From Modestobacter sp. VKM Ac-2982 (lineage in GTDB: Bacteria; Actinomycetota; Actinomycetes; Mycobacteriales; Geodermatophilaceae), in the NCBI RefSeq assembly GCF_026967935.1, contig NZ_JAPVBL010000002.1, positions 124,001 through 188,000 of the forward strand: 64,000 nucleotides of DNA, read 5' to 3'. Of this stretch, positions 3,691-31,494 are shown piece by piece. The stretch's first letter is position 1. Each line of letters starts with the position of its first letter. Below the pieces are notes generated by a model. That model searched no databases. It had not been told where the DNA came from and worked only from the letters and a program-made list of their open reading frames with translations. Position numbers and translations under genes: made by a program.

Positions 3691-4653
3691 TCAGCCGCGC
3701 GCGGCCGCCAGCTCGGCGAGGGTCGGCGGGTCGGCCCCGGCGCGGGTGCAGGCGAGGGCGGCGACCAGCGCCGCGTCCTCCAGCAGGGCGGTCAGCTCGG
3801 TCTCGGGCAGGTCGCGCAGCTGGGCGGAGGTGAGCACGCCGCTGCGGGCGAGCCCGGCGAACAGCCCGGCGGCCAGGCTGTCGCCGGCGCCCACGGTGTC
3901 GACCACGGTCACCGACGGGGGCTGCACCCGCAGCACCGCGCCGCCGGGGCGGGCCGCCCGCAGCGTGTCACCGCCGTCGGTGACGACCACCAGGGCGGGG
4001 CCCTCGGCGGCCCAGCGGGCGGCGGCGGCGTCCAGGTCGGCCCCGGGTTCCAGCCACGCCAGGTCCTCCGCGCTCACCTTGACGATGTCGGCGACCCGGC
4101 GCAGCTCGGTCACCTGGGCGCGCACCGCGTCGGGGTCGGCGATGAGGGTCGGGCGCACGTTCGGGTCGAAGCTGACGAGCGCGGTGCCCTCGGCGCGCAC
4201 CCGGCGCACCAGGTCGGCGATGGCCAGCGCACCCGGCGGGGTCCAGCTGGAGATCGACCCGATGTGCACGATCCGGGTGTCGGCCGGCCAGGCCGCCGCC
4301 AGCTCCGCAGCCGTCCACTGCCAGTCGGCGGCGCCCACGGTGTGGAAGGAGTAGCTCGCCGACCCCTGCTCGGCCAGCTCGACCACGGCCAGGCTGACCG
4401 GTTCGGGGGCGGTGAGCATGGCGTCGGTGGCCACGCCGTTGCCGGCCGCGTGCTCGCGCAGCAGCGCACCGAACGGGCCGGGGCCGACGCGGGACATCAG
4501 GTGCGTGACCGCGCCGAGCCGCGCGGCCGCCACCGCGACGTTGAGCGCGTTGCCGCCCGGGAAGGCGGTGTACTGCGGCGGTGCGCCCGGAGTCGGGTCC
4601 CCGGAGGGGATCAGGTCGATGACGAGTTCGCCGCAGACGGTGATCACGGCCAC
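3691..4653 (-). CDS. PfkB-family sugar kinase
   Basis: About 320 residues with the two ribokinase/PfkB signatures: an N-terminal substrate-binding region (VITVCGELVIDLIP, then FPGGNALNVAVAAARLG) and a C-terminal DTVGAGDSLAAGLF motif whose aspartate is the catalytic base. It should phosphorylate a free sugar or sugar derivative with ATP; fructokinase-like members look similar, but substrate is not readable. Two GTG starts are possible (4653 or 4647); neither has a clear Shine-Dalgarno site. It is the last gene before the terminator at 3636 and follows the Gfo/Idh/MocA gene by 65 bases, so it probably handles a sugar released by the glycosidases of the island. Confidence 0.88.
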   Translation of the reverse strand: MAVITVCGELVIDLIPSGDPTPGAPPQYTAFPGGNALNVAVAAARLGAVTHLMSRVGPGPFGALLREHAAGNGVATDAMLTAPEPVSLAVVELAEQGSASYSFHTVGAADWQWTAAELAAAWPADTRIVHIGSISSWTPPGALAIADLVRRVRAEGTALVSFDPNVRPTLIADPDAVRAQVTELRRVADIVKVSAEDLAWLEPGADLDAAAARWAAEGPALVVVTDGGDTLRAARPGGAVLRVQPPSVTVVDTVGAGDSLAAGLFAGLARSGVLTSAQLRDLPETELTALLEDAALVAALACTRAGADPPTLAELAAARG

Positions 4654-4718
4654 ACCGTAGCCGCGGCCGGTCTCGCGACGTCCTCGGCCGTCGACGGGAT
4701 GAGCTGTGAGGTGCCGGC

Positions 4719-5801: not shown

Positions 5802-5810
5802 GCGGTCACG

Positions 5811-7439: not shown

Positions 7440-7557
7440 GGGATCTCCTGTCCTGGGCTGCGGTGCCCAGTGGCTGGGAAGGGGAGGAGCGACGGGCATC
7501 CGGGCCGATCGACGCCCGTCCAGCATCCGTGGCGGGCGTCACGCCGCCGTAGCCCGA

Positions 7558-7572
7558 TGCCATTGACCGGCA
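7558..7572. promoter_or_regulatory. IclR-type operator, copy 1 (exact consensus)
   Basis: TGCCATTGACCGGCA, an imperfect dyad with TGCC and GGCA ends, lies 119 bases upstream of the FAD monooxygenase start, in the gap after the DUF3500 gene. It is one of five near-identical copies in intergenic regions of this island. GGCGTCACGCC at 7535-7545, between the site and the gene, is also palindromic. Confidence 0.7.
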
Positions 7573-7591
7573 GAGCGAGACGGATCCGTCC

Positions 7592-8839
7592 TCAGGACCC
7601 GTGCACGGCCTGCCACTGCCGGACCCAGGCCCGGCCGTAGTCGTTGCCGTGCGGGGTGCGCAGCACGGTGTGCACGTGGAAGGGCTGCGGGGTGGAGTAG
7701 TCGAGGAAGACGCCGCAGTGGTGGTCGAGCTCGGCGATCAGCACCGGGGACTGGACTCGGTAGTAGAAGACGTCGCCGGGCTCGGCGCCGCCGATCCAGC
7801 TGAACCAGGTCTCGTCCAGGTGGTCGGTCACCTCGCGCATGCGGGCCCGGCGCGGACCGTCGGGCAGCAGGCCGACGAACTGCTCGACGATCCGCAGGAC
7901 CAGCTGCCGGGCGTCTTCGGGCATGTCCGATACCCGGATGCCCTCGGGCGGGATGACCCGGTTGTCCTGGAAGGCGCCGGCCAGGTGCCGTTCGTCGCCG
8001 GGGTGCACCCGGCCCGGCGGCATGGCCGGGTCGACCATCTGCGCGTAGACGGTGGCCGCCCGCCGCTGCTCCTCGGGCAGGGCGGTCATCACCGCGAGGC
8101 CGGTGGCGATCCGCTCGGTGAAGGACTCGGTGCCGGCGTGCGGGCCCGCGTCGATCTCGTTGGGCTCGGCGCCGAGGAAGACCGGAGAGAGCTGCATCCT
8201 GCCCTCGACGACGAGGCAGTTGAGGGCGCAGTGGTGCCCGAACAGCTGCCAGCCCCAGGGCGCCCGGGGGTCAGGGGTGCCGTAGAGGGCGATGTTGTAG
8301 CTGAACTCGTTGAGCACGTTCTGCAGGCCGACGACCTCGCCGAGGAAGCCGTTGATCAGCATCATCGCGTGGGCGAGCTCGAAGCCCTCGGGGGACAGCG
8401 ACGCGCGGACCAGCGCCAGCGCCCGCTCCCGCACCTCCGAGGGCTGGAACTCCAGCCGCAGGCCGGTGTCGAACTGCATGAACTCCGGGTTGGCCCAGGT
8501 CTGCCACTCCGGTGCGTCCACCGGGAAGGCGATCCGGTCCCGGCCGTCGTCGTCCAGGGCGGCGAGCAGGTCCTGCGCCGCGGCCACCATGGCCGCGACC
8601 GGCGCCTCCTCGCCCGGCTCGGCCGGGGTCAGGGGGTACAGCCCCTCGCGCAGCGTGCCGTCGGAGGTGACCCCGCGGAACTCCTGGAGGTACAGCGGCG
8701 TCCAGCCCTCGACCAGCCCGCCGGTGAAGGTGCCCGGGGTCCGCGCGTGCTCCCGGTAGGCGTAGGGGTCGAGCGCGCGGACGTCGGCCAGCCGGGGGTG
8801 GTCGTGCGGGAAGCGGTACTGCCGGAACTCACCGGTCAC
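7592..8839 (-). CDS. DUF3500 protein, probable aromatic/flavonoid catabolism
   Basis: A 415-residue DUF3500-family protein with no signal peptide. Conserved features visible: WGWQLFGHHCALN (His202, His203), AELDHHCGVFLDY (Glu370, His373, His374), and the end motif HVHTVLRTPHGNDYG (His388, His390, His397). These clustered His, Glu and Asp residues look like metal or acid-base ligands. The family has no function I know with certainty. It overlaps the FAH-family gene by 11 bases and is co-transcribed with an esterase and probably a quercetinase, so it is likely a catabolic enzyme. Because no ring-cleavage dioxygenase is otherwise present, ring opening of the phloroglucinol-type product is a reasonable guess. 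Confidence 0.85.
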   Translation of the reverse strand: MTGEFRQYRFPHDHPRLADVRALDPYAYREHARTPGTFTGGLVEGWTPLYLQEFRGVTSDGTLREGLYPLTPAEPGEEAPVAAMVAAAQDLLAALDDDGRDRIAFPVDAPEWQTWANPEFMQFDTGLRLEFQPSEVRERALALVRASLSPEGFELAHAMMLINGFLGEVVGLQNVLNEFSYNIALYGTPDPRAPWGWQLFGHHCALNCLVVEGRMQLSPVFLGAEPNEIDAGPHAGTESFTERIATGLAVMTALPEEQRRAATVYAQMVDPAMPPGRVHPGDERHLAGAFQDNRVIPPEGIRVSDMPEDARQLVLRIVEQFVGLLPDGPRRARMREVTDHLDETWFSWIGGAEPGDVFYYRVQSPVLIAELDHHCGVFLDYSTPQPFHVHTVLRTPHGNDYGRAWVRQWQAVHGS

Positions 8840-9680
8840 GGCGCGCCTCGTTGCCCACGACCGTGGTGGTCAGCACGCCGAGCTTCTCGACCTCGACCTC
8901 GACGACGTCCCCGGGCTGCATCAGCCACGGGGGTGTCCGGGCGTAGCCGACCCCCGACGGCGTGCCGGTGGCGAGCAGGTCGCCGGGGCGCAGGGTGAAC
9001 GTCCGGGAGATCAGGGAGAGGGTGTCGCCGACGGTGTAGACCATCTCGTCGGTCCGCCCGTCCTGGACGGTCTCGCCGTTGACCCGGGTCTGCACCCGCA
9101 GCCCGTTGCGCAGGTCGCCGACCTCGGAGGCACCGACCAGCGGCCCCAGCGGGCCGGACTTGTCGCCGTTCTTGCCCAAGATCCACTGGCTGGTGAGCTT
9201 CTGCGCCCGCCGGGAGGTCAGGTCGTTGAAGGTGGAGTAGCCGACGACGGCGGCCAGCGCCTCATCGGGGGTGGCGTCGACCAGGGTGCTGCCGACGTAG
9301 GCCATCACCTCGCCCTCCCAGTCCAGGCCGGCCTCGTCGGCGGGCACGGGCACCTCGGCGCCGTCCACGGTCAGCGACTGGGTCCAGCGGGCGAAGAGCG
9401 TCGGGTAGGGCGGGACCTCCTGGTCGCGGAAGCTGCCCTCGGCGACGTGCTTCAGGTAGTTCAGCCCGATGCAGATCACCCGGGCGCCGGGCAGCACCGG
9501 CGGCACGAACTCGACGTCGGTGGCGGACAGCGTCTCCCCGCGGGGCTCGCGCGACAGGTACCCGGTGGCGTCGGCCCAGAAGTCGTCCAGCCCGGCGACC
9601 ACGGTGACCGAGGCGCCGTCCTCGGCCAGTGCGGCGACCTGCACCTCGCCGCCGTCCCGGCGGATGCCGACTGTCCTCAT
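8829..9680 (-). CDS. Fumarylacetoacetate hydrolase (FAH)-family enzyme
   Basis: A 283-residue member of the FAH superfamily: an N-terminal small domain, then VICIGLNYLKHVAEG, the acidic metal-binding stretch DWEGEVMAYVG, the GKNGDKSGPLGP loop, and the closing GDLLATGTPSGVGY. The family hydrolyses C-C bonds of beta-diketo acids or acylpyruvates, or decarboxylates/hydrates related compounds, with Mg2+ or Mn2+. AAGGAGACCCAGC precedes the ATG. It overlaps the esterase upstream by 4 bases (ATGA) and the DUF3500 gene downstream by 11, so the three are translationally coupled. In context it should cleave the ring-opened product of the trihydroxybenzoate branch (inference). Confidence 0.9.
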   Translation of the reverse strand: MRTVGIRRDGGEVQVAALAEDGASVTVVAGLDDFWADATGYLSREPRGETLSATDVEFVPPVLPGARVICIGLNYLKHVAEGSFRDQEVPPYPTLFARWTQSLTVDGAEVPVPADEAGLDWEGEVMAYVGSTLVDATPDEALAAVVGYSTFNDLTSRRAQKLTSQWILGKNGDKSGPLGPLVGASEVGDLRNGLRVQTRVNGETVQDGRTDEMVYTVGDTLSLISRTFTLRPGDLLATGTPSGVGYARTPPWLMQPGDVVEVEVEKLGVLTTTVVGNEARRDR

Positions 9681-10600
9681 GCTGGGTCTCCTTCGTCGAT
9701 CAGGTGGCGCCGCAGGAAGGTGATCGTGCGGTCGAGTGCGTCGGTGGCCGCGTCCGGTGCGCCGAGCCACATGTGGTCGGCGTCGTCGTAGGTGTGCAGC
9801 TCGACGTCCGTCCCTGCCGCGGTCAGGGCGGCGTGCAGCCGCTGGCTCTGCACGGTTGCGACGAACCGGTCGGCCCGGCCGTGCAGCAACAGGACCGGCG
9901 GTGCAGCGGGGGAGACGTGCGTGATCGGGCTGGCCTGCGCCGCCAGGTCGGCGGCCGCGGACACCGGGGCGCCGATCAGCTGCGCCTCTCGGCTGGCCGG
10001 GTCCGCCGGGTCGTTGCCGATGTCGGTCGCCACCGCCGCGACGTCGCTCGGGGCGTACCAGGCGGCCACGGCGGAGACCGCGGACGACGGGCCGGTGACC
10101 CCGACCTCGCCCTCGAGGGCGGGGTCGGTCACCAGCCCGAGCAGCTCGGCCAGGTGGCCGCCGGCCGACTCGCCCCACGACGCGATCCGGTCGGCGTCCA
10201 CCCCCAGCTCGGCGGCTCGGGCGCGCAGCCACCGGACGGCGGCCTTCGCGTCCTGCAGCTGCGCCGGCCAGACCTGCTCCGCGGACAGCCGGTAGTCGAC
10301 GCTGGCCACGGCGACCCCGGCCTGCGCGACCTGCTCGAACGGCGTCGGGACGGCGTCCCGGTACATCGGGCCGACGGCGTGCCGGCTGCCCAGCCGCCAC
10401 CCGCCGCCGTGCAGGAAGACCACGGCCGGCGCCGGGCCGGCACCGGCCGGCAGGTACAGGTCGAGCTCCAGTGGCCGGGCGCCGGGCAGCGCCGCGTACG
10501 GCACGCCGGACAGCACCCGGACGCCGCCGGCGCCCGTGCGGGCCGGGGGCAGCGGCGCCTCGTGGGCGGGTGGAGGGAGCGGGAGGGCGGGCGTGGGCAC
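9677..10600 (-). CDS. Alpha/beta-hydrolase esterase (HSL/BD-FAE type)
   Basis: A 307-residue cytoplasmic esterase: oxyanion motif HGGGW at 64-68, nucleophile Ser145 in GESAGGH, acid in LLLHGRADRFV and catalytic His in the YDDADHMWLG segment. It overlaps the FAH-family gene by four bases. Quercetin dioxygenation gives a depside ester (2-protocatechuoyl-phloroglucinol carboxylate), and an esterase is needed to split it; position makes this the obvious candidate, though specificity is not readable. It is clearly paralogous to the esterase at 22117 (both have PAQLxDAKAAVR and GESAGGHLA). Confidence 0.88.
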   Translation of the reverse strand: MPTPALPLPPPAHEAPLPPARTGAGGVRVLSGVPYAALPGARPLELDLYLPAGAGPAPAVVFLHGGGWRLGSRHAVGPMYRDAVPTPFEQVAQAGVAVASVDYRLSAEQVWPAQLQDAKAAVRWLRARAAELGVDADRIASWGESAGGHLAELLGLVTDPALEGEVGVTGPSSAVSAVAAWYAPSDVAAVATDIGNDPADPASREAQLIGAPVSAAADLAAQASPITHVSPAAPPVLLLHGRADRFVATVQSQRLHAALTAAGTDVELHTYDDADHMWLGAPDAATDALDRTITFLRRHLIDEGDPA

Positions 10601-10679: not shown

Positions 10680-11240
10680 TCAGGCGGTGGGCTCGGGCCA
10701 CTGGAAGTCGGGCTTGAACTGCATGTTGTGCTGCTGGGCAGCGGCCTGCATGCGCGGGAAGTCCGGGATGAACGGCGGCTGGTCGGCAGCCGTGGAGTCC
10801 GTCGGGGTGCCCATGTGCTGGAAGAACCGTTCGAACCCGCCGGAGAGCGTGCCCATCATCCGGGCGTGCTCGACGATCTGGTAGGCGTGCGCGAACCCGG
10901 CCGGGACGTAGCCGAAGTCGCCGGGGGTGAGCAGCTGCGACTGCTTGCCGCCCTCGGCGTCCTCGAAGAAGAGCCGGACCTTGCCCTCGAGCACGTAGAA
11001 CGTCTCGTGGGTCTCGTTGTGCGAGTGCGTCGGGATGACGTCGCCGGCGGGGGAGTCCGCGGTGACGATGCCGAACTGGCCGTCGGTCTCGTCGCCGGAG
11101 AGCAGCACGGTGAACAGGTCACCGAACAGCTTGGCGTGCTCGCCCTCGCCGCGGCGCAGCACGTAGGGCTGGGGCTTGCCGGGCAGCACGCCCTGCCACT
11201 GCGGGCCCTTCGCGGGGTCGATCAGGTACTCGAAGCTCAT
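10680..11240 (-). CDS. Quercetin 2,3-dioxygenase-like cupin
   Basis: A 186-residue monocupin. Cupin motif 1 is complete: Gly66, His72, His74, Glu79 and Gly86 (within PTHSHNETHETFYVLEG), and motif 2 has GDFGYVPAGFAH with His118, giving the 3-His/1-Glu metal site of quercetinases. The length equals that of the Streptomyces monocupin quercetinase QueD as I recall it. Reaction: O2-dependent opening of the flavonol C-ring with release of CO. Start at 11240 chosen for GGGAGC 5 bases upstream. A copy of the shared operator at 11315 and a palindrome at 11280 lie upstream. Other cupins can share these motifs, but the glycosidase-rich context supports a flavonol substrate. Confidence 0.82.
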   Translation of the reverse strand: MSFEYLIDPAKGPQWQGVLPGKPQPYVLRRGEGEHAKLFGDLFTVLLSGDETDGQFGIVTADSPAGDVIPTHSHNETHETFYVLEGKVRLFFEDAEGGKQSQLLTPGDFGYVPAGFAHAYQIVEHARMMGTLSGGFERFFQHMGTPTDSTAADQPPFIPDFPRMQAAAQQHNMQFKPDFQWPEPTA

Positions 11241-11335: not shown

Positions 11336-12508
<1,173 letters not shown>

Positions 12509-12647: not shown

Positions 12648-13454
12648 TCAGGGGGTCCCGGGTGCCCGCCAGGCGCCGAGCCCACGGGAGATGCCCCGTG
12701 CGGCCGTGCGCACCGCCGGCCCGAGGAGTCGTGGCTCGGCGTTCTCCGCGGGCACCAGCACCGACAGCGCGGCGACGACGGTGCCCTGGGCGTCGTGCAC
12801 CGGGGCGGCGACGGAGACGATCGGCTCCGGGGCGCCCCGGCGGAAGGTGGCCAGCCCGTCCCGCCGGATCTCCGCCAGCGTGCGCCGCAGCGCCGCGGGC
12901 GACACCGGGATCTGCTCCGGGAGGTGCATCAGCGGCTGCCCGAGCACGTGCTCCTGGAACCCGGACTCCGCGAAGGCCAGGAGCACCAGTCCGACTCCGG
13001 TGGAGTGCAGGGGCATCCGCCCGCCGGGCCGGTAGAGGGCGGCGACGGCCCCGTGGGACGAGAGCCGCTCCACCATCAGCGCCTCCTCGCCCTCCAGGAC
13101 GGCGAGGAGCACGTGCTGCCGGGTCACCTCCTCCAGGTCGCCCATGAACGGGAGGGCCACCCGGCGGAGCTCGTGGCTGCGGGGGGTGAGCGACGCCACC
13201 TCCCACAGCCGCATGCCGATGGAGAAGCGGCCGTCGGTGCCCCGCTCGAGGGCGCCCCACTCCAGCAGCCGGCCGGCCAGCCGCAGCGCCGAGCTGGCCG
13301 GGATGCCCGTGCGCCGGCTGAGCTCGCTGAGGGTCAGGTACGGGCGGTTGCTGTCGAAGGCGCCGAGCAGGGCGAGGGCCCGGTCGACGACGGGATCGCC
13401 CTGTGGAGGGCGCCGGCCGCGGACCCGCGTGCCGGGGGAGACGTCGTCCGTCAC
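12648..13454 (-). CDS. IclR-family transcriptional regulator of the island
   Basis: A 268-residue IclR protein: N-terminal winged helix (LSELSRRTGIPASSALRLAG at about 45-65) and a C-terminal ligand-binding domain ending in IVSVAAPVHDAQGTVVAALSV. The GTG at 13454 is chosen because AGGAG lies 9 bases upstream; the reading frame stays open far upstream only because of high GC. The gene is transcribed away from the ABC-transporter operon, and a copy of the repeated 15-bp site lies 48 bases upstream of it. Sites of this type lie before five transcription units of the island, so this protein is the likely regulator of the regulon and of itself. The effector is unknown; a flavonoid or phenolic acid is plausible. 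Confidence 0.9.
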   Translation of the reverse strand: MTDDVSPGTRVRGRRPPQGDPVVDRALALLGAFDSNRPYLTLSELSRRTGIPASSALRLAGRLLEWGALERGTDGRFSIGMRLWEVASLTPRSHELRRVALPFMGDLEEVTRQHVLLAVLEGEEALMVERLSSHGAVAALYRPGGRMPLHSTGVGLVLLAFAESGFQEHVLGQPLMHLPEQIPVSPAALRRTLAEIRRDGLATFRRGAPEPIVSVAAPVHDAQGTVVAALSVLVPAENAEPRLLGPAVRTAARGISRGLGAWRAPGTP

Positions 13455-22023: not shown

Positions 22024-22089
22024 GATCATGGAGCTGGCGGGAGGACACGCCGCGGTACCCCGGCGCGTCCGCACCGGTGCTCCATGATC
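22024..22089. repeat. Nested inverted repeat between rhamnosidase A and the esterase
   Basis: Outer arms GATCATGGAGC (22024-22034) and GCTCCATGATC (22079-22089) are perfect complements; an inner stem (GGACaCGCCG with CGGCGcGTCC, one mismatch) sits in between. It fills the only sizeable gap within the downstream part of the operon. It looks like a REP-type extragenic palindrome or an mRNA-stability hairpin. It contains an ATG (22084) in frame with the esterase, but the esterase has a better start at 22117. Confidence 0.6.
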
Positions 22090-22116
22090 GTCGGCCCGCT
22101 CGACCGAGAGGACCCC

Positions 22117-23031
22117 ATGAGCACCACCGAGACCCCCGAGTGGGCCGGGCCCGCGCACTTCCTGGACCCGCACGAGCCCATCCGCCGCGCGGACGGCGCC
22201 CGGCACTTTTCCGGGCTGACCTACGCGGTCGCGTTCGGCTACCGGCCGCTGCAGCTGGACCTCTGGGTGCCCGACACCCCGGCGCCGGCGCCGCTGGTGG
22301 TCTACGTGCACGGTGGCGGCTGGATGATGGGAGACCGGCGGTACCTGCCCGAGACACTCCGCCCGGGGTCGTTGTTCGACGCCTTCCTCGACGCCGGCCT
22401 CGCGGTCGCGACCATCGACTACCGGCACGCGCACGAGGCCGCGTTCCCGGCCCAGCTGCACGACGCGAAGGCCGCCGTCCGTTACCTGCGGGCGCACGCC
22501 GACGTCCTCGGGGTCGACACCACCCGGATCGGGGCGATGGGCGAGTCGGCCGGCGGGCACCTGGCCGCGCTGCTCGGGCTCACCGCGCACCGCCCCGACC
22601 TGGAGGGTCGTCACGGGGTCACCGGACCGTCCAGCGCGGTCGACGTCGTCGTCGACTGGTACGGCGTGGCCGACCTGGACACCATGCCCCGGCAGGCGCC
22701 GCCGCCGGAGGTCGCTGCGCTGCTGCCGGTGGAGATGCAGGTGCCGCCGGAGGACCAGCTCCTCGACGGCCTGGACGGACAGCTCCGGGACGACGCCAGC
22801 CCGATCTCCCACGTCACCGCGGACGCCCCGCCGTTCCTGCTGGTGCACGGCACCGCGGACTGGCTGGTGCCCTGCTCCCAGAGCGAGCAGCTGCACGCCG
22901 CCCTCACCGCCGTCGGCGTGGACTCCCGGCTGGTGCCGGTGAAGGGGGCCGGGCACATCTGGCTCGGGTGCGACGACGTGGACGGCATCGTCGAGCTGTC
23001 CGTGAAGTACCTGGCGGAGGCGCTGGCATGA
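22117..23031 (+). CDS. Alpha/beta-hydrolase esterase in the rhamnosidase operon
   Basis: A 304-residue hydrolase: HGGGW oxyanion motif at 65-69, nucleophile Ser144 in GESAGGH, acid in LVHGTADWLVP, and His in GAGHIWLG. GAGAGGA lies 8 bases before the ATG. It overlaps the second rhamnosidase gene by 4 bases. It is similar to the esterase at 9677 and also resembles bacterial feruloyl/acetyl-xylan esterases (BD-FAE). Between two rhamnosidases it may remove acyl groups from acylated flavonoid glycosides or act on the depside; specificity is unknown. Confidence 0.88.
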   Translation: MSTTETPEWAGPAHFLDPHEPIRRADGARHFSGLTYAVAFGYRPLQLDLWVPDTPAPAPLVVYVHGGGWMMGDRRYLPETLRPGSLFDAFLDAGLAVATIDYRHAHEAAFPAQLHDAKAAVRYLRAHADVLGVDTTRIGAMGESAGGHLAALLGLTAHRPDLEGRHGVTGPSSAVDVVVDWYGVADLDTMPRQAPPPEVAALLPVEMQVPPEDQLLDGLDGQLRDDASPISHVTADAPPFLLVHGTADWLVPCSQSEQLHAALTAVGVDSRLVPVKGAGHIWLGCDDVDGIVELSVKYLAEALA

Positions 23032-25664
23032 GCGACCTGACCGTCCTGCCCGTGACCGTCGAGCACCACCGCGAGCCGATGGGCATCGGCGACACCCGGC
23101 CGCGGCTGTCCTGGGTGCCCCGCACCGACCTCGACGGCTGGCGGCAGGCCGCGTACGAGCTGGAGATCGCACCCGAGGACGGCCCGGTCTGGTCGTCGGG
23201 CCGGGTGGCGTCCGACGAGTCGGTCCTGGTGCCCTGGGGCGCTCCCGAGCTGACCAGCCGGGAACGGCGCGCGGTCCGCGTCCGGGTGTGGGGGGCCGGT
23301 GCGAGCGAGCCGTCGGCGTGGAGCGAGGACACCGTCGTCGAGGCCGGCCTCCTTGCGCCGGCCGAATGGACCGCGACGCTGGTCCACCCGGTGATCCCGG
23401 TCGAGGCCGGCGACGAGCCGGCCGCGCTGCTGCGCCGGGAGTTCGTGCTGGACCAGCCGGTCACCCGGGCCCGGCTGTACGCCACCGCACAGGGCGTCTA
23501 CGAGGCCGAGCTGAACGGGTCGGTCGTCGGCGACCACGTGCTGGCGCCCGGCTGGACGAGCTACCACCACCGACTGCGCTACCAGACCCACGACGTGACG
23601 GCGCTGCTCACCGAGGGCGCCAACGCGCTCGGCGTGCACCTGGCGCAGGGATGGTTCGCCGGCCCGCTCGGCTTCACCGGCAAGCGGGCCTTCTACGGCG
23701 ACCGGACCGGCGCCTTCGTCCAGCTCGAGGTCGAGCACCCCGACGGCAGCCGCACCGTCGTGACCACCGACGGTTCCTGGCGCTCGGCGCCCAGCCCGCT
23801 CACCCGGGCCGGGCTCTACAGCGGGGAGACCTTCGACGCCCGCCGCGACCTCCCCGGCTGGTCGCAGCCGGCCTTCGACGACAGCAGCTGGACGCCGGTG
23901 GAGACCGGGACGCTGGACGTCGCCACCCTGGTCGCCCCGACCGGCCCGCCGGTGCGCCGGACCGAGGTCCTGCCGGTGCGGGAGATCAGCACCTCGCCGT
24001 CGGGGAGGACGCTGGTCGACTTCGGCCAGAACCTGGTCGGCCGGCTGCGCCTCTCGCTGCCGGACGCGCCGGCCGGCACGGAGGTCACCGTCCGGCACGC
24101 GGAGGTGCTCGAGCACGGCGAGCTGGGCACCCGCCCGCTGCGCGGGGCCGACGCCACCGACGTTGTCGTGCTGGACGGGCAGGGCCCGCGCACCTGGGAG
24201 CCGCGGTTCACCTTCCACGGCTTCCGGTACGCCGAGGTCAGCGGCTGGCCGGGGGAGCTGACGCCGGGCGACCTCGAGGCCGTCGTCGTGCACACCGACC
24301 TGCGCCGGACCGGCACCTTCGCGTGCTCGGACCCGGACGTGGACCGGCTGCACGAGAACGTCGTCTGGGGGATGCGGGGCAACTTCCTCGACGTCCCCAC
24401 CGACTGCCCGCAGCGCGACGAGCGGCTGGGGTGGACCGGGGACCTGCAGGTCTTCGCCCCGTCCGCCTCCTTCCTCTACGACACCACCGGCATGCTCCGC
24501 TCCTGGCTGGCCGACCTCGCGGTCGAGCAGCGGGTGGACCACGACGGCATCGTGCCGATGTACGTGCCGTTCCTGCCGCTGCTGCCCTTCCCGCAGCAGG
24601 CGGAGGTGGGCTGGGGCGACGCGGCCGTCGTCGTCCCGTGGGTGCTGTACCAGCGGACCGGGGACGCCGGGCTGCTCGCCGACCAGTGGGGCTCCATGAC
24701 CGCCTGGATCGACGTCTTCGCCGCGCGGGCGGGCGCCGACCTGGACTTCCCCGAGGGTGGGTTCTCCTTCGGCGACTGGCTGGACAGCGCGGCGCCGCCG
24801 GACAACCCCGCCGCGGCGCGCACCCCCTGGCAGTGCGTCGCCACCGCCTACCTCGCCCGTTCGGCGCGCACGGTCGCGCAGGCCGCGGAGGTCCTCGGCC
24901 GGGACGGCGCCCGGTTCGCCGACCTCGCCGCGCGGGCGACCGAGCGGTTCCGCGCCGAGTACGTCTCCCCGAACGGCCGGGTCGCCTACCCGTCGCAGAC
25001 GGCGTACGCCCTGGCCCTGGAGTTCGACCTGCTCACCGCCGACCAGCGGGCGCACGCCGGCCGGCTGCTGGCCGAGCAGGTGCTGAAGGACGGCTTCCAC
25101 ATCGCCAGCGGCTTCCTCGGCACCCCGTTGGTCACCGACGCGCTGACGAACGCCGGGGAGCTGGCGACGGCCTACGAGCTGCTGCTCCAGCGGGAGAACC
25201 CGTCGTGGCTGTACCCGGTGACGATGGGCGCGACGACGATCTGGGAGCGCTGGGACTCCATGCTCCCCGACGGGTCGATCAACCCCGGGGACATGACCTC
25301 GTTCAACCACTACGCGTTCGGTGCGGTGGCCGACTGGCTGCACCGCACCGTCGCCGGCCTGGCCCCGGCCGAGCCCGGTTACCGGCGGTTGCGGGTCGCC
25401 CCCCGCCCCGGCCCGGGGATCACCTCCGCGGCGGCCACCCATGAGACGCCGTACGGGACGGCGGCGGTCTCCTGGACCCTCGACGGCGCCGAGCTGACGC
25501 TGGAGCTGACCGTCCCGCCGAACACGACCGCCGAGGTGTCACTGCCCGACGGCAGCGCACCGGTCCAGGTGGCGGCCGGGCGGCACTCGTTCACCCGCAC
25601 GGTGACCGTCCCGGCGCCGGTGGAGAAGCCCGCGCTGTTCTTCGACCCGGATGCCCACCAGTGA
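23028..25664 (+). CDS. GH78 alpha-L-rhamnosidase, copy B
   Basis: An 878-residue rhamnosidase with the canonical GH78 signature DCPQRDERLGWTGD (general acid Glu465), preceded by the family N-terminus PMGIGDTRPRLSWVPRTD, the sugar-binding domain ATAQGVYEAELNGSVVGD, and followed by GATTIWERWDSM and FNHYAFGAVADWLHR. The canonical motif here differs from copy A ([13 protein letters not shown]), so the two may prefer different linkages, for example alpha-1,2, alpha-1,6 or direct aglycone links (inference). No export signal. Start-stop overlaps of 4 bases occur at both ends (ATGA and GTGA). Confidence 0.94.
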   Translation: MSDLTVLPVTVEHHREPMGIGDTRPRLSWVPRTDLDGWRQAAYELEIAPEDGPVWSSGRVASDESVLVPWGAPELTSRERRAVRVRVWGAGASEPSAWSEDTVVEAGLLAPAEWTATLVHPVIPVEAGDEPAALLRREFVLDQPVTRARLYATAQGVYEAELNGSVVGDHVLAPGWTSYHHRLRYQTHDVTALLTEGANALGVHLAQGWFAGPLGFTGKRAFYGDRTGAFVQLEVEHPDGSRTVVTTDGSWRSAPSPLTRAGLYSGETFDARRDLPGWSQPAFDDSSWTPVETGTLDVATLVAPTGPPVRRTEVLPVREISTSPSGRTLVDFGQNLVGRLRLSLPDAPAGTEVTVRHAEVLEHGELGTRPLRGADATDVVVLDGQGPRTWEPRFTFHGFRYAEVSGWPGELTPGDLEAVVVHTDLRRTGTFACSDPDVDRLHENVVWGMRGNFLDVPTDCPQRDERLGWTGDLQVFAPSASFLYDTTGMLRSWLADLAVEQRVDHDGIVPMYVPFLPLLPFPQQAEVGWGDAAVVVPWVLYQRTGDAGLLADQWGSMTAWIDVFAARAGADLDFPEGGFSFGDWLDSAAPPDNPAAARTPWQCVATAYLARSARTVAQAAEVLGRDGARFADLAARATERFRAEYVSPNGRVAYPSQTAYALALEFDLLTADQRAHAGRLLAEQVLKDGFHIASGFLGTPLVTDALTNAGELATAYELLLQRENPSWLYPVTMGATTIWERWDSMLPDGSINPGDMTSFNHYAFGAVADWLHRTVAGLAPAEPGYRRLRVAPRPGPGITSAAATHETPYGTAAVSWTLDGAELTLELTVPPNTTAEVSLPDGSAPVQVAAGRHSFTRTVTVPAPVEKPALFFDPDAHQ

Positions 25665-27172
25665 CGTCTGTGCCCGTGACCCCGGCGCCCGTCGTCCCCG
25701 GCTTCCATCCCGACCCCAGCGTCTGCCGGGTCGACGACACGTACTGGATGGTGCACTCGAGCTTCGAGTACGCCCCGGGCGTGCCGCTGTACCGCTCGAC
25801 CGACCTGGTCTCCTGGGAGCAGGTCGGGCACGTGCTGGCCCGGCCGTCGCAGCTCGACGTCTCGGCCGCCCCGGGCTCTGGCGGCATCACCGCCTGCACG
25901 ATCCGCCACCACGACGGCCGGTTCTGGATGGTCACCACCAACCTCGCTGATGGCGGCTGGCAGACGCTGGTCACGGCCGAGGACCCGCGGGGGGAGTGGT
26001 CGGAGCCGGTCCGGATGGACGAGGTCCGCGGGATCGACCCCGACCTCGCCTGGGACGACGACGGGACCCTGCTGGTCACCTATGCGGGCTTCGGCGCCAA
26101 AGGGCCGGCCGGGGTCGTGCAGCAGGCCGTCGACCCGGTCACCGGGTGGGCGCTGACCGAGCGGCAGCGCGTGTGGCAGGGCACCGGCGGCCGGTTCCCG
26201 GAGGGCCCGCACCTGTACCGGGTCGGGGAGCACTGGTACCTGCTGATCGCCGAGGGCGGCACCGAGCGCGGGCACGCGGTCACCATCGCCCGCGGCCCGT
26301 CACCGCAGGGGCCGTGGGAGCCGTGCCCGCACAACCCGCTGCTGACCCACCGGGGTGTCGAGTCGCCGGTGCAGAACACCGGCCACGCGGACCTGGTGCA
26401 GCGCCCCGACGGCAGCTGGGCGATCGTCTTCCACGGCGTCCGGCCGCGCGGAGCGAGCCCGCAGTTCCACGTCCTGGGTCGGGAGACCTTCGCCGCCGAC
26501 GTGGTGTGGACCGACGGCTGGCCCCGGCTGGGGGAGTGGTTGACCCCGGCCGCCGGGCCGGTCGAGGTCGAGGAGCTGGGCGGCGCCGCGCTGCCGGTCT
26601 CCTGGGTGTCGCCGCGCCGGTTCCCCGGCGACGCGCTCACCCGGGGCGAGGGCGGCTGGCGGCTCACCGCCGGGGCCGCCGACCCGGCCTCGGACGACGC
26701 CGCCTTCGCCGGCCGCCGGCAGGAGCACCTGTACTGCCGGGCCCGTGCGGTCGTGGCCGCGGACGGCGACGGGGTCGGTGGACTGTCGGTGCGCATGGAC
26801 CCCCGCCACCGCCTCGACCTCCAGGTCGCCGGGGGCGTGGTGCGCGCGGTCGCGCAGGTCGGCCCGCTCCGATCGCTGCTGGGGGAGGCCGCCGTCCCGG
26901 CCGGGGACGTCGTGCTGGAGGTCCGGGCCGTCCCGTCCGAGGGCCACTTCTCCTCCACTGCGCTCGGCCCGGACCAGCTGGTCGCCGGGGTCGTGGACGC
27001 CGGCGGCGTGTTCGCCGAGCTCGGCCGGATCGACGGCCGCTACGTCTCCACCGAGGTGGCCGGCGGGATGACCGGCCGGATGGTCGGCGTCTGGTGCTCG
27101 TCCGGGTCGGTCGTCGTCCGCTCGTTCCGCTACGTCGGCGCCGACGACCCGGCCGCCGTCCTCACCGCCTGA
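25661..27172 (+). CDS. GH43 glycosidase (xylosidase/arabinofuranosidase type)
   Basis: A 503-residue enzyme: five-blade GH43 propeller in about the first 310 residues, with catalytic base Asp18 in PGFHPDPSV, a second Asp in RGIDPDLAW and acid Glu181 in RFPEGPHLY; then a C-terminal beta-sandwich (GH43_C2-like, about 330-503). Members split beta-xylosides or alpha-L-arabinofuranosides. No signal peptide, so cytoplasmic. GTG start overlaps the rhamnosidase B stop by 4 bases. In this operon it could trim pentosyl groups from flavonoid glycosides such as quercetin arabinosides or xylosides. Confidence 0.92.
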   Translation: MTSVPVTPAPVVPGFHPDPSVCRVDDTYWMVHSSFEYAPGVPLYRSTDLVSWEQVGHVLARPSQLDVSAAPGSGGITACTIRHHDGRFWMVTTNLADGGWQTLVTAEDPRGEWSEPVRMDEVRGIDPDLAWDDDGTLLVTYAGFGAKGPAGVVQQAVDPVTGWALTERQRVWQGTGGRFPEGPHLYRVGEHWYLLIAEGGTERGHAVTIARGPSPQGPWEPCPHNPLLTHRGVESPVQNTGHADLVQRPDGSWAIVFHGVRPRGASPQFHVLGRETFAADVVWTDGWPRLGEWLTPAAGPVEVEELGGAALPVSWVSPRRFPGDALTRGEGGWRLTAGAADPASDDAAFAGRRQEHLYCRARAVVAADGDGVGGLSVRMDPRHRLDLQVAGGVVRAVAQVGPLRSLLGEAAVPAGDVVLEVRAVPSEGHFSSTALGPDQLVAGVVDAGGVFAELGRIDGRYVSTEVAGGMTGRMVGVWCSSGSVVVRSFRYVGADDPAAVLTA

Positions 27173-28034: not shown

Positions 28035-28041
28035 GCACGGC

Positions 28042-28794: not shown

Positions 28795-28895
28795 GGCACG
28801 AGTCTGCCCAGCGCCGGCACCGCCGGAGACCACCGTGCCGATCACCGGCAGCCCGGTTCCACCAGCGGCCCGACCACCCGGACGACGTCACGCCT

Positions 28896-28910
28896 TGCTG
28901 GCCAATGGCA
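28896..28910. promoter_or_regulatory. IclR-type operator, copy 5 (reverse orientation)
   Basis: TGCTGGCCAATGGCA (reverse complement TGCCATTGGCCAGCA), 13 of 15 identical to copy 1; outer bases extend it to a CTTGC...GCAAG dyad (28894-28912). It lies in the divergent region between the SDR gene and the GH2 gene, about 15 kb from the regulator gene, and so extends the regulon to both. Confidence 0.68.
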
Positions 28911-29082
28911 AGGACGTCGCGGTGGTGACGGCGGTCACCGAGGATCGACGGTGCGCGGGTGCCCGCGGCGATCCAGCAGACGGCCGATCGCCGGGAACGC
29001 CGGCCCCGCGCGGGCATGGGGCGCTCCAGCCAGGACGCCATCCGTCGCGTGCTGACCTCGTTCCCCACTCGAGAGGGCAGCC

Positions 29083-31494
29083 ATGCGCCGCACCCCGTTC
29101 ACCACCGGCTGGCAGTTCCGGCCGCACGCCAACTCCTTCGCCGAGATGGTCGGGGCCGCCGCACCCTGGCAGCCGGTCACGCTGCCGCACGACGCGACGC
29201 TGGCCCAGCCGCGCGACGCCGCTCACGGTGCCGGGTCGGGGTACTTCCCGGGCGGCGTGTACGAGTACCGGCGGACGTTCGACGTCCCCGCGGACGCCGT
29301 CGAGCAGCGCTGGCTGCTGGAGTTCGAGGGCGTCTACCGCCGGGCGATGGTCTACGTGAACGGCAGCCTCGCCGGGCACTGGGCGTCGGGGTACACCGGC
29401 TTCACCGTGCCGCTGGACGACCATCTCCGGTACGGCGCGGAGAACGAGGTGCGGGTGGTCTGTCGCGCCGGCGCCGACTCCCGCTGGTACGCCGGCGCCG
29501 GCATCCACCGGCCGGTGCACCTGCTGGCCGGCCCGCTGCTGCGCGTCGCCCCGGACGGCGTCCGGGTGACCACGCTGGACGCCGACCGCGAGCTGGCGGT
29601 CGTCGAGGTGGTGACCACCGTCGTCAACGACCGGCTGCGGCTGGCCACCGTCGCGGCGGTCACCGAGCTGCGCGACGCCGCGGGCACCGTCGTCGCCGCC
29701 GATCGGGTGCCGGTCAGCGTGCGCCCCGGGGAGCCGGCGGTGGTGCGGCAGCGGCTCGTCGTCCGCGAGCCGGCGCTGTGGGGGCCGGACTCCCCGGCGC
29801 TGCACACCGCGACGGTCGCCCTGGTCGAGGAGGACGCCGTGCTGGACACCGAGACGGTGACCACCGGCATCCGCACCCTCTCCGTCGACCCGGTCCGCGG
29901 CCTGCGGGTCAACGGCGAGCCGGTGCTGCTGCGTGGGGCGTGCGTCCACTCCGACAACGGGGTGCTCGGCGCGGCGGCGGTCGACCGGGCCGACGAGCGC
30001 CGGGTGGAGCTGCTGCGGGCCGCCGGCTTCAACGCCCTGCGCAGCGCGCACAACCCGATGAGCCGGGCTGTGCTCGAGGCCTGCGACCGGCTCGGGGTCC
30101 TGGTGATGGACGAGCTGACCGACATGTGGACGGAGAGCAAGTCCGACTTCGACGCCGCGCTGGACTTCCCCGAGTGGTGGGCGCGTGACGTCGCCGCGAT
30201 GGTGGCCAAGGACGTCAACCACTCCAGCGTGGTGATGTACTCGATCGGCAACGAGATCCCCGAGCTCGGCACCCCGCACGGCGCGCTGTGGTCCCGCCGC
30301 CTGGCCGAGGAGGTGCGGCGCCTCGACCCGACCAGGCCGGTGACCAACGGGGTCAACGGCATGCTGGCCGTGATCGGTGAGGCGACGGCCGACCTGGCGG
30401 ACGCTGAGGGCGGCATCAACACGATGCTCGCCGACATGGGCGGCTTCATGCGCGAGCTCTCGCGGTCCGAGCTCGTCGGACGGCGGACTGCGGAGGCGTT
30501 CGGCGTGCTCGACGTCGCCGGGCTGAACTACATGGACACCCGGTACGAGAGCGACCGCGACGTCTTCCCTAACCGGGTGGTCGTCGGGAGCGAGACCTTC
30601 GCGACCGAGATCGACCGGCTCTGGCGGTTGGTGCAGGACAACCCGCACGTCATCGGTGACTTCACCTGGACCGGCTGGGACTACCTGGGCGAGGCCGGCA
30701 TCGGGCGCACCGCCGACGCCGAGGAGCCGGGGGCCCGCGGGCTCTCCGGGCCCTTCCCGTGGCTGCTCGCGTGGTGCGGCGACATCGACATCACCGGGCA
30801 CCGGCGGCCGGCGTCGTACTACCGGGAGATCGTCTTCGGGCTCCGGTCCGACCCCTACCTCGCCGTCCAGCGGCCGGAACGGTCCGGCCGGGAGACGGTG
30901 TCGCCGCCGTGGGCGTGGACCGACTCGGTGGGCAGTTGGGGCTTCGCCGGTGCCGAGGGCGCCCCGCTCACCGTCGAGGTCTACAGCGACGCCGATGAGG
31001 TCGAGCTGCTGCTGGACGGCCACTCGCTGGGCACCGCGAAGGCGGGGGAGGCCCACCGCTTCCGCGCCGAGTTCACCGTGCCCTGGGCGCCGGGCGAGCT
31101 GACCGCGGTCGCCCGCACCGGCGGGGCGGAGACCGGCCGGTGCTCGCTGCGCTCGGCAGACGGACCGGTGCAGCTGGCCGTCGCCGTCGACCGGCAGGTG
31201 GTCCGAGCCCAGGACACCGACCTGGCGTTCGTCGACCTCGCGCTGACCGACGCCGCCGGCACGGTCGCGCTGGGGGTCGACCGCGAGGTGACCGTGGCGG
31301 TGGCGGGCCCGGGCGTGCTCGTCGGGTTCGGCAGCGCCGCGCCGGTGACCGAGGAGTCCTACGGCGACGACGTGCACACCACCTTCGACGGCCGGGCGCT
31401 CGCCGTCGTCCGCCCGACCGGCGCCGGCGCCATCACCGTGACCGCGACCGCCGAGGGCTGCGCCCCGGTCACCGTGACGGTCGAGGCCCGCTGA
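29083..31494 (+). CDS. GH2 beta-galactosidase/beta-glycosidase
   Basis: An 803-residue family 2 enzyme: N-terminal jelly-roll sugar-binding domain (about 1-150, with GVYEYRRTFDVP and MVYVNGSLAGHW), Ig-like domain, then a TIM barrel with acid/base Glu391 in YSIGNEIPE and nucleophile Glu504 in VVVGSETFA, followed by two C-terminal beta domains. No signal peptide, so cytoplasmic. GH2 covers beta-galactosidase, glucuronidase and others; specificity is not clear, but galactose or glucuronic acid from flavonoid glycosides is plausible. GAGAGGGC lies just before the ATG. The shared operator lies 173 bases upstream. Confidence 0.92.
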   Translation: MRRTPFTTGWQFRPHANSFAEMVGAAAPWQPVTLPHDATLAQPRDAAHGAGSGYFPGGVYEYRRTFDVPADAVEQRWLLEFEGVYRRAMVYVNGSLAGHWASGYTGFTVPLDDHLRYGAENEVRVVCRAGADSRWYAGAGIHRPVHLLAGPLLRVAPDGVRVTTLDADRELAVVEVVTTVVNDRLRLATVAAVTELRDAAGTVVAADRVPVSVRPGEPAVVRQRLVVREPALWGPDSPALHTATVALVEEDAVLDTETVTTGIRTLSVDPVRGLRVNGEPVLLRGACVHSDNGVLGAAAVDRADERRVELLRAAGFNALRSAHNPMSRAVLEACDRLGVLVMDELTDMWTESKSDFDAALDFPEWWARDVAAMVAKDVNHSSVVMYSIGNEIPELGTPHGALWSRRLAEEVRRLDPTRPVTNGVNGMLAVIGEATADLADAEGGINTMLADMGGFMRELSRSELVGRRTAEAFGVLDVAGLNYMDTRYESDRDVFPNRVVVGSETFATEIDRLWRLVQDNPHVIGDFTWTGWDYLGEAGIGRTADAEEPGARGLSGPFPWLLAWCGDIDITGHRRPASYYREIVFGLRSDPYLAVQRPERSGRETVSPPWAWTDSVGSWGFAGAEGAPLTVEVYSDADEVELLLDGHSLGTAKAGEAHRFRAEFTVPWAPGELTAVARTGGAETGRCSLRSADGPVQLAVAVDRQVVRAQDTDLAFVDLALTDAAGTVALGVDREVTVAVAGPGVLVGFGSAAPVTEESYGDDVHTTFDGRALAVVRPTGAGAITVTATAEGCAPVTVTVEAR

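What the first reader, a model, noticed from the sequence alone, without database searches (positions are those of the whole stretch)
3691..31494. A flavonoid-glycoside utilisation island with enzymes for both sugars and aglycone
One 28-kb block combines two GH78 rhamnosidases, GH1, GH43 and GH2 enzymes, a dipeptide-type importer, two esterases, a complete quercetinase-type cupin (His72, His74, Glu79, His118), an FAD hydroxylase, an FAH-family enzyme and DUF3500. Quercetinases open flavonols to a depside plus CO (established). The full route from a glycoside such as rutin to protocatechuate and trihydroxybenzoate products is my inference. All glycosidases lack signal peptides, so import would come before deglycosylation.
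Basis: partly seen in the sequence, partly recalled or inferred. Interest (0 to 1): 0.88.

Follow-up and report, generated by a model that had tools for sequence, protein, structure and literature searches.

The report
Bacterial operon for dismantling plant flavonols
A soil bacterium carries one gene island that appears to import sugar-linked plant flavonols, strip the sugars, split the pigment in two with a quercetinase, and open the left-over ring by a route so far described only in fungi.

Summary
The cupin's best solved relative is the quercetinase QueD (E 2e-46), with all four metal ligands kept.

Comparative data supply one. Of 80 loci with the same DUF3500 clade, 67 carry a nearby FAH gene. 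Among the 60 with full flanks, all 27 with a quercetinase-type cupin also carry esterase, flavin hydroxylase and FAH; of the 33 without, 3 carry the esterase. Two quercetinase architectures occur beside this set. Once, hydroxylase and DUF3500 form one reading frame.

A fungal DUF3500 protein is the proposed ring opener for 1,2,3,5-tetrahydroxybenzene (PMC12388069), a pathway that a 2026 paper says "currently seems restricted to fungi" (PMC13094099). Hydroxylating the flavonol A-ring half should give that compound.

My reading: quercetinase, depside esterase, hydroxylase, DUF3500 ring opening, FAH acylpyruvase. The first step is well supported by homology. The A-ring steps are inferred. The only solved DUF3500 relative is titled a dehydratase, and with kinship allowed for the co-occurrence test lacks power.

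The parts
12648..13454 (-). IclR-family regulator (PcaR/PcaU-like), first gene of the catabolic operon
   Evidence: PF01614/PF09339; TIGR02431 112 bits, below its cut-off of 285; next to the operon in most of the relatives fetched
11336..12508 (-). GH1 beta-glucosidase-like enzyme
   Evidence: PF00232 E 2e-62; TLNE and ENG strings present (motifs recalled); conserved in relatives
10680..11240 (-). Monocupin quercetinase (QueD-like flavonol dioxygenase)
   Evidence: Best PDB match 5fli QueD E 2.2e-46; H72/H74/E79/H118 fall on QueD ligands H69/H71/E76/H115
9677..10600 (-). Alpha/beta-hydrolase esterase (BD-FAE, GESAG); proposed depside esterase
   Evidence: PF20434 E 2e-54; GESAG; a homologue is at 27 of 27 quercetinase-type loci and 3 of 33 others with full flanks
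8829..9680 (-). FAH-family hydrolase; proposed 2,4-dioxoacid (acylpyruvate) hydrolase
   Evidence: PF01557 E 3e-62; PDB relatives include 8gsr diketo-deoxyrhamnonate hydrolase and FAHD1 acylpyruvase; homologue near 67 of 80 clade-A DUF3500 genes
7592..8839 (-). DUF3500 protein; proposed ring-opening enzyme for 1,2,3,5-tetrahydroxybenzene
   Evidence: PF12006 E 8e-105; H202, H203, E370, H388, H390 invariant in the 49-row alignment; fungal DUF3500 precedent in PMC12388069
5811..7439 (-). Group A flavin hydroxylase; proposed 2,4,6-trihydroxybenzoate or phloroglucinol hydroxylase
   Evidence: PF01494 E 2e-68 and PF21274; PDB relatives RebC, 2,4-dichlorophenol 6-monooxygenase, 2-hydroxybiphenyl 3-monooxygenase; a relative is fused to DUF3500 in L065
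4719..5801 (-). Gfo/Idh/MocA sugar oxidoreductase, probably sugar processing
   Evidence: PF01408; found next to the core in some of the fetched relatives only
3691..4653 (-). PfkB sugar kinase, last gene of the operon
   Evidence: PF00294; found in 4 of the 13 fetched relatives
13635..15227 (+). Solute-binding lipoprotein, dipeptide/nickel type (SBP_bac_5)
   Evidence: PF00496 E 2e-59; lipobox-like LAAC
15342..16283 (+). ABC permease, DppB type
   Evidence: PF00528
16280..18271 (+). Fused ABC permease and ATPase (DppC+DppD)
   Evidence: PF00528 and PF00005 in one 663-aa protein; matched over about the same length in relatives
18268..19290 (+). ABC ATPase, DppF type
   Evidence: PF00005 and PF08352
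19377..22022 (+). GH78 alpha-L-rhamnosidase a
   Evidence: PF17389 E 5e-107
22084..23031 (+). Second BD-FAE esterase (deacylation of acylated glycosides inferred)
   Evidence: PF20434; not found between the GH78 genes of relatives G005 and G021
23028..25664 (+). GH78 alpha-L-rhamnosidase b
   Evidence: PF17389 E 2e-119
25670..27172 (+). GH43 glycosidase (xylosidase/arabinofuranosidase type)
   Evidence: PF04616
27189..28034 (+). Nucleoside-hydrolase-like protein, role unclear
   Evidence: PF01156
29083..31494 (+). GH2 glycosidase, peripheral to the core
   Evidence: PF02836 and others; varies in identity and place among relatives

Best explanation
This is an island for using O-glycosylated flavonols such as rutin or quercitrin, probably switched by its IclR regulator.
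(1) The ABC importer brings in the glycoside (inferred).
(2) Cytoplasmic GH78, GH1 and possibly GH43/GH2 enzymes remove rhamnose, glucose and pentoses (families shown, substrates inferred).
(3) The QueD-like cupin opens quercetin to the depside 2-protocatechuoylphloroglucinol carboxylate plus CO (strong homology, activity not tested).
(4) Esterase 9677-10600 splits the depside into protocatechuate and 2,4,6-trihydroxybenzoate (inferred).
(5) Protocatechuate goes to a chromosomal protocatechuate 3,4-dioxygenase (gene found).
(6) The FAD hydroxylase turns 2,4,6-trihydroxybenzoate, or phloroglucinol after loss of CO2, into 1,2,3,5-tetrahydroxybenzene (inferred).
(7) DUF3500 opens that ring (inferred from a fungal family member); intradiol opening would give 2,4-dihydroxymuconate, the enol form of 2,4-dioxoadipate.
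(8) The FAH enzyme cleaves this acylpyruvate to pyruvate plus malonate, or acetate after decarboxylation (inferred from family chemistry).
For: QueD is the best PDB match, with all four ligands conserved. The operon is contiguous, with overlapping genes, and syntenic in relatives.

Among the 59 genomes searched (own included), all 14 with the cupin have a clade-A DUF3500, against 2 of the other 45 (Fisher p 9e-12, not corrected for kinship).

In 80 loci from named records: FAH near 67, this hydroxylase clade near 46, the esterase near 38, a quercetinase-type cupin near 33. With full flanks (60 loci), 27 of 27 cupin loci have esterase, hydroxylase and FAH; the 33 cupin-free loci have the esterase in 3, this hydroxylase in 8 and FAH in 25. 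So the esterase follows the quercetinase, and FAH follows DUF3500, as the pathway predicts. Control: of 26 loci with other DUF3500 clades, FAH is near 2 and the other three near none.

The cupin is a monocupin in Geodermatophilaceae and a bicupin in Arthrobacter and Brevibacterium.

One 998-residue reading frame holds hydroxylase and DUF3500. Genus relative G004, with no cupin match anywhere in its genome, has IclR-hydroxylase-FAH-DUF3500.

A DUF3500 protein is the proposed ring-opening dioxygenase for 1,2,3,5-tetrahydroxybenzene in Aspergillus nidulans (PMC12388069, passages). A pcaH gene is present above cut-off.
Against: No activity was measured. The only solved DUF3500 relative (9x86, 24% identity) is titled a dehydratase in amipurimycin biosynthesis, so the fold need not mean dioxygenase. 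No fungal sequence was available to show that the bacterial clade groups with the fungal enzyme.

The FAD hydroxylase's solved relatives are RebC and phenol-type monooxygenases; no salicylate-type decarboxylating hydroxylase is among the 17 listed.

With kinship allowed for, only 3 well-supported independent contrasts exist. The esterase goes with the cupin in 2.6 of 3 on average, the hydroxylase in 2.3, FAH in 0.4, none against; too few for a significant sign test.

GH78 genes lie near only 8 of 27 full-flank quercetinase-type loci, so the rhamnoside part is variable. The importer family is named for peptides and nickel, and flavonoid transport by it is a guess. No CO dehydrogenase large subunit passed its cut-off, so CO use is not supported here.
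Confidence: 0.62

Rival explanations
1. The island is a flavonol island with a working quercetinase, but DUF3500 is not a ring-cleaving dioxygenase. It is a hydratase, dehydratase, lactonase or other hydrolytic enzyme acting after ring opening, and the ring is opened another way, for example by a second oxidation by the flavin hydroxylase.
For: The only solved relative, 9x86, is titled dehydratase ApmL in amipurimycin biosynthesis. Of 243 Foldseek matches (50 shown) only 9x86 is below E 0.001, so the model shows no clear similarity to a known dioxygenase fold.
Against: No other ring-cleavage candidate was recognised in the window's module. DUF3500 with FAH persists at loci where this hydroxylase clade is not found near, and in one Streptomyces locus a Rieske oxygenase lies nearby instead. 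The fungal literature proposes ring opening for this family. Near-universal H202, H203, E370, D372, H388, H390 fit a metal site, though metal binding alone would not exclude a lyase.
Confidence: 0.22
2. The FAH enzyme and the sugar genes serve oxidative L-rhamnose catabolism (2,4-diketo-3-deoxy-L-rhamnonate hydrolase). The island is mainly for rhamnose-rich plant polysaccharide, with the cupin operon an accessory.
For: FAH matches 8gsr, L-2,4-diketo-3-deoxyrhamnonate hydrolase, and NF053535 with 144 bits. GH78, GH43, GH2, a PfkB kinase and an SDR are near.
Against: NF053535's cut-off is 500 bits, so FAH is not that equivalog. FAH stays beside DUF3500 in 67 of 80 loci, while GH78 is near 10. 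G004 and G028 have IclR, hydroxylase, FAH and DUF3500 with no GH78 profile match on the 17-kb stretch.
Confidence: 0.07
3. The operon acts on another phenolic, such as gallate esters, hydroxycinnamate esters or flavan-3-ols, and the cupin is a ring-cleaving dioxygenase for that substrate.
For: Both esterases belong to the feruloyl-esterase-like BD-FAE family. Fungal DUF3500 was studied on gallate.
Against: The cupin's five best PDB sequences, named QueD, yxaG or quercetin 2,3-dioxygenase, lie at E 2e-46 to 3e-42, a sixth quercetin 2,3-dioxygenase at 3e-14, and the next cupin at 1e-9. One Arthrobacter and one Brevibacterium counterpart were compared and both match yxaG/quercetin 2,3-dioxygenase best.
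Confidence: 0.06

Closest known systems
Bacterial quercetinases QueD (Streptomyces sp. FLA) and YxaG (Bacillus subtilis), EC 1.13.11.24
   Same: Cupin fold, 3His/1Glu ligands in place, strong sequence match over nearly the whole chain
   Different: The passages I read of PMC4416304 treat the enzyme alone ('gene cluster' occurs 0 times). Here it lies in an operon with esterase, FAH, DUF3500 and a hydroxylase.
Fungal 1,2,3,5-tetrahydroxybenzene central pathway (Martins et al. 2024; paper not held, known here through PMC12388069 and PMC13094099)
   Same: A monooxygenase makes 1,2,3,5-tetrahydroxybenzene and a DUF3500 protein is the proposed ring opener. That the fungal cluster also holds an FAH-like gene is recalled, not read here.
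   Different: Bacterial, entered from flavonols through a quercetinase and esterase rather than from gallate. The hydroxylase resembles RebC and phenol-type hydroxylases.
1,2,3,5-tetrahydroxybenzene in anaerobic gallate degradation (Eubacterium oxidoreducens; title seen in a reference list; details recalled)
   Same: A bacterium in which 1,2,3,5-tetrahydroxybenzene has a role
   Different: Anaerobic; as recalled it is a co-substrate of a molybdenum transhydroxylase, not a ring opened with oxygen
Herbaspirillum seropedicae fde naringenin pathway (recalled, no call)
   Same: Aerobic bacterial flavonoid catabolism with a flavin monooxygenase
   Different: As recalled, it starts by hydroxylating the intact A ring of a flavanone, followed by an extradiol-type enzyme; no DUF3500 or quercetinase is recalled there.
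GH78-bearing carbohydrate-use islands of actinobacteria (recalled as a kind)
   Same: GH78, GH43, GH2, GH1 and an importer
   Different: Here an aromatic-degradation operon diverges directly from the importer genes

Membership tests
Cupin quercetinase (EC 1.13.11.24) | Three His and one Glu metal ligands in the cupin motifs | tested here: met
   H72, H74, E79, H118 fall on QueD H69, H71, E76, H115
Cupin quercetinase (EC 1.13.11.24) | Closer to known quercetinases than to other cupins | tested here: met
   Top six PDB sequences are named QueD, yxaG or quercetin 2,3-dioxygenase, five of them at E 2e-46 to 3e-42; the next cupin is E 1e-9
Cupin quercetinase (EC 1.13.11.24) | CO-releasing cleavage of quercetin | not testable with these tools
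   Needs enzyme assay
1,2,3,5-tetrahydroxybenzene central pathway | DUF3500 (PF12006) protein as ring opener | tested here: met
   PF12006 E 8e-105. Family membership only; the reaction was not tested.
1,2,3,5-tetrahydroxybenzene central pathway | Flavin monooxygenase linked to DUF3500 | tested here: met
   This hydroxylase clade near DUF3500 in 46 of 80 loci and a relative fused to it in L065
1,2,3,5-tetrahydroxybenzene central pathway | Bacterial DUF3500 clade groups with the fungal enzyme | not testable with these tools
   No fungal sequences are held in the collections searched
1,2,3,5-tetrahydroxybenzene central pathway | 1,2,3,5-tetrahydroxybenzene formed and consumed | not testable with these tools
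   Needs metabolite work
Known ring-cleavage dioxygenase folds (intradiol, extradiol, cupin) | DUF3500 model resembles one of them | tested here: not met
   Foldseek against the PDB with a pLDDT 92.5 model: only 9x86 below E 0.001; 50 of 243 matches shown
FAH-family acylpyruvate hydrolases | FAH catalytic domain | tested here: met
   PF01557 E 3e-62; FAHD1 acylpyruvase among PDB matches. Substrate not tested.
2,4-didehydro-3-deoxy-L-rhamnonate hydrolase (NF053535) | Score over the curated equivalog cut-off | tested here: not met
   144 bits against a cut-off of 500
GH78 alpha-L-rhamnosidase | Six-hairpin catalytic and accessory domains | tested here: met
   PF17389, PF08531, PF05592, PF17390 in both proteins

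The most novel reading that the evidence does not exclude
Actinobacteria possess a complete 1,2,3,5-tetrahydroxybenzene ring-opening pathway, thought so far to be restricted to fungi. Its ring-cleaving enzyme, DUF3500, is a dioxygenase with a fold unlike the known intradiol, extradiol and cupin classes. It forms a portable core with an FAH hydrolase that has been joined several times to different quercetinases, hydroxylases and possibly a Rieske oxygenase. This would supply the missing genes for the A-ring half of aerobic bacterial flavonol degradation.
Probability: 0.5. Interest if true: 0.75.

Novelty: new variant of a known kind. Interest (0 to 1): 0.62.

Why it matters
Flavonols are common plant phenolics reaching soil. 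Bacterial quercetinase has been studied mainly as an isolated enzyme, and the listings and passages I saw gave no gene route for the phloroglucinol-type half it releases. If this reading holds, five adjacent genes define that route. DUF3500, still a 'domain of unknown function', gains a testable reaction in bacteria. [quoted passage not shown] The co-located genes also give a genomic marker for flavonol degraders in soil and rhizosphere data.

Tried and rejected
Rhamnose-oxidation role for FAH: rejected as the main role, because its score is far below the equivalog cut-off and it follows DUF3500, not GH78.

CO recycling: the CO dehydrogenase large-subunit model found relatives below cut-off only. 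Of the four loci whose DNA I scanned, one carries AYRGAGR and none the other motif (motifs recalled). A paper on peat archaea reports co-expression of QueD and CO dehydrogenase (PMC11153144, passages); nothing here supports it for this genome.

Structure route to function: the DUF3500 model is confident (pLDDT 92.5), but only 9x86 matches. The second aligner was not available. Model coordinates were not in the script box, so the geometry of the conserved His/Glu residues could not be measured.

Literature: DUF3500 occurs in 3 held papers, all read in passages only; the Cryptococcus one only lists it in a table of enriched domains. The key fungal paper (Martins 2024, PMC10832562) is not held; what I say of it comes from the two citing papers or is marked recalled. 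Searches for bacterial tetrahydroxybenzene or phloroglucinol pathways showed 25 of 1,552, 15 of 37, 8 of 8 and 10 of 77 papers; no title or abstract start shown there reports a bacterial DUF3500 pathway. Read in passages: PMC12388069, PMC13094099, PMC4416304, PMC8416521, PMC10698177, PMC12366328, PMC11153144, PMC3990503. PMC10698177 did not explain the name Amc20; in PMC12366328 the terms occur in the reference list only.

Kinship-controlled test: too few independent contrasts for significance. The first Fisher test counted one genome too many and was redone.

Rows dropped: alignment A2 holds 48 of the 80 loci plus the window; L132 had a stop, others were left out as redundant or partial, and a few ends were trimmed by a codon. 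The tree holds 78 of 80 loci plus the window. Its mono/bi labels were set by hand, and 'none' includes loci cut by a contig end. Of the 23 'bi' rows only L136 and L120 were compared with PDB sequences; in the Brevibacterium rows one cupin domain passed my profile cut, not two. Of 27 fetched loci of other DUF3500 clades, 26 entered the control; in one the profile gave no DUF3500 hit.

Full report
What is there. Genes were called in the window with a codon model and identified with Pfam and NCBIfam. Two divergent transcription units meet at 13454/13635. The minus-strand unit runs IclR, GH1, cupin, esterase, FAH, DUF3500, FAD hydroxylase, Gfo/Idh/MocA, PfkB. The plus-strand unit runs binding lipoprotein, permease, fused permease-ATPase, ATPase, GH78, esterase, GH78, GH43, nucleoside-hydrolase-like. 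Esterase, FAH and DUF3500 overlap by 4 and 11 bases. The window lies in a 4.78-Mb genome. Its closest named relatives by DUF3500 are Modestobacter sp. VKM Ac-2984 and Ac-2985.

The cupin. It matches QueD (5fli, E 2.2e-46) and yxaG (1y3t, E 4e-44); the first cupin not named a quercetinase or yxaG is at E 1e-9. H72, H74, E79 and H118 fall on QueD H69, H71, E76 and H115, the ligands mutated in PMC4416304 (passages read). [quoted passage not shown]

Synteny among relatives. 59 genomes were searched, own included. Fourteen have a close homologue of this cupin (69% identity or more; the partial hit in G022 included). Stretches of up to 40 kb were fetched for the 13 others and compared. In 10 of 13 the cupin, esterase, FAH, DUF3500 and hydroxylase lie on the same stretch. 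In 9 of those 10 both GH78 genes follow the importer; in G006 the contig ends first. G011 is split over contigs, G022 is a fragmentary assembly, and in G030 the cupin and an esterase sit apart from an IclR-esterase-hydroxylase-FAH-DUF3500 cluster (L181).

DUF3500 in the same genomes. PF12006 was searched in the same 59 genomes. I took 335 bits and over as the window's clade, a cut set after seeing the gap to 285, plus the fragment in G022. On that count all 14 cupin genomes have it and 2 of 45 others do (G004, G028). Fisher p is 9e-12, not corrected for kinship. G004 and G028 carry IclR, hydroxylase, FAH and DUF3500 without a quercetinase or esterase match on the fetched stretch (L182, L183). 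So the smallest unit is hydroxylase plus FAH plus DUF3500.

The wider picture. In a draw of 396 genomes across the phylum, own included, 31 have PF12006. 33 stretches were fetched. Six match the window's clade with over 390 bits. One of them, L065, holds a single 998-residue reading frame with a hydroxylase at residues 28-551 and DUF3500 at 586-986. Searched with profiles made from the window's genes: FAH lies near 67 of 80, this hydroxylase clade near 46, the esterase near 38, a quercetinase-type cupin near 33, GH78 near 10. In the 60 loci with at least 9 kb on both sides, 27 have the cupin and all 27 also have esterase, hydroxylase and FAH. The 33 without the cupin have the esterase in 3, this hydroxylase in 8, FAH in 25. 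As a control, 26 loci with other DUF3500 clades, some on short contigs, have FAH near 2 and the other three near none.

What this pattern says. The esterase goes with the quercetinase and FAH goes with DUF3500. That is expected if the esterase hydrolyses the depside, which only a quercetinase makes, and if FAH handles the product of DUF3500. Quercetinase-type cupins near this module come in two builds: monocupins of about 190 residues in Geodermatophilaceae and one Amycolatopsis, and bicupins, mostly in reading frames of 360-430 residues, in Micrococcaceae and Brevibacterium. Two bicupins were compared with the PDB and both match yxaG/quercetin 2,3-dioxygenase best (E 2e-66; E 4e-50). On the DUF3500 tree the three labels need 13 changes against a shuffled mean of 29.7. 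Allowing for kinship leaves only 3 well-supported independent contrasts. On average the esterase agrees with the cupin in 2.6 of 3, the hydroxylase in 2.3 and FAH in 0.4, and none goes the other way; this cannot reach significance.

Other partners. Loci without this hydroxylase clade often have something else. A second flavin hydroxylase type (L066-like) scores over 500 bits at L102, L103, L114, L116 and L156 (L114 and L116 also carry the window's type). Streptomyces himalayensis has a Rieske oxygenase, a ferredoxin-domain protein and a DUF4440 protein nearby; phmmer found the Rieske type at no other of the 80 loci, so this is a single case. An FCD-type regulator like the one in L105 is found at 30 of the 80 loci, L105 included, usually just before DUF3500. 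Rhodococcus qingshengii RL1 lists, with locus tags close together, a DUF3500 gene, a 3-(3-hydroxyphenyl)propionate-type hydroxylase and an FCD protein (PMC8416521, passage).

Function of DUF3500. PMC12388069 (passages) reports that gallate is converted to 1,2,3,5-tetrahydroxybenzene by PhyA in Aspergillus, and that a DUF3500 protein, AN10530, is proposed to open that ring to 5-hydroxydienelactone, citing Martins et al. 2024 (not held). [quoted passage not shown] By chemistry, replacing the carboxyl of 2,4,6-trihydroxybenzoate by hydroxyl, or hydroxylating phloroglucinol, gives exactly 1,2,3,5-tetrahydroxybenzene. Intradiol opening would give 2,4-dihydroxymuconate, a tautomer of 2,4-dioxoadipate. 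That is an acylpyruvate, the substrate class of FAH-family acylpyruvases such as FAHD1, which is among the solved relatives. This chain of chemistry is my inference.

Structure. AlphaFold2 on a 49-row alignment gave pLDDT 92.5. Foldseek found one clear solved relative, 9x86, at E 1.5e-18 and TM 0.53 over the query, titled dehydratase ApmL in amipurimycin biosynthesis; the sequence search lists the same entry as Amc20. H202, H203, E370, D372, H388, H390 and D400 are near-universal across the 49 clade-A rows and 26 other DUF3500 proteins. The HH, ExD and HxH positions can be seen in the 9x86 alignment. This suits a metal site but does not settle dioxygenase against lyase, and the dehydratase title counts against the dioxygenase reading.

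B ring and CO. The genome has a protocatechuate 3,4-dioxygenase beta gene over cut-off, with a second, weaker match (possibly the alpha subunit) beside it. No CO dehydrogenase large subunit passed its cut-off.

Verdict. The addition is a role for the hydroxylase, DUF3500 and FAH as an A-ring pathway matching the fungal 1,2,3,5-tetrahydroxybenzene route, with DUF3500 as the pivotal untested step. I put about 0.85 on a flavonol-specific quercetinase operon and about 0.6 on the whole scheme.

Noticed in passing
window 43537-44643 (+): A 368-residue protein made of four near-identical cold-shock domains joined by Gly/Arg-rich linkers (PF00313 four stretches); cold-shock proteins usually have one domain (recalled).
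   Followed up: partly
window 16280-18271 (+): The importer's second permease and first ATPase are one fused protein (DppC+DppD), matched over about the same length in relatives.
   Followed up: partly
L065:7957-10950 (-): Natural fusion of a flavin hydroxylase and DUF3500 in one 998-residue frame.
   Followed up: yes
window 27189-28034 (+) and 36349-37296 (-): Two nucleoside-hydrolase-like proteins (PF01156) beside glycosidase genes; a role in cleaving some plant glycoside is possible.
   Followed up: no
window 48851-50401 (-): Aromatic amino acid lyase (PF00221, 617 bits) next to another IclR regulator at 50474-51232.
   Followed up: no
window 908-3622 (+): Large GH10 xylanase with CBM4/9 and HYR domains just outside the island; its start shows a signal-peptide-like stretch.
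   Followed up: no
L164, L166, L168, L169, L170: Microbacterium and Demequina group (L169 an unnamed actinobacterial MAG) with DUF3500 beside a dipeptide-type importer, and GH78 in L170, but no FAH, this hydroxylase or quercetinase-type match near at my cut-offs: possibly a variant for another glycoside.
   Followed up: no
Corynebacterium glutamicum (control genome): A PF12006 match over cut-off in a genetically tractable model actinobacterium; its neighbourhood was not examined.
   Followed up: no
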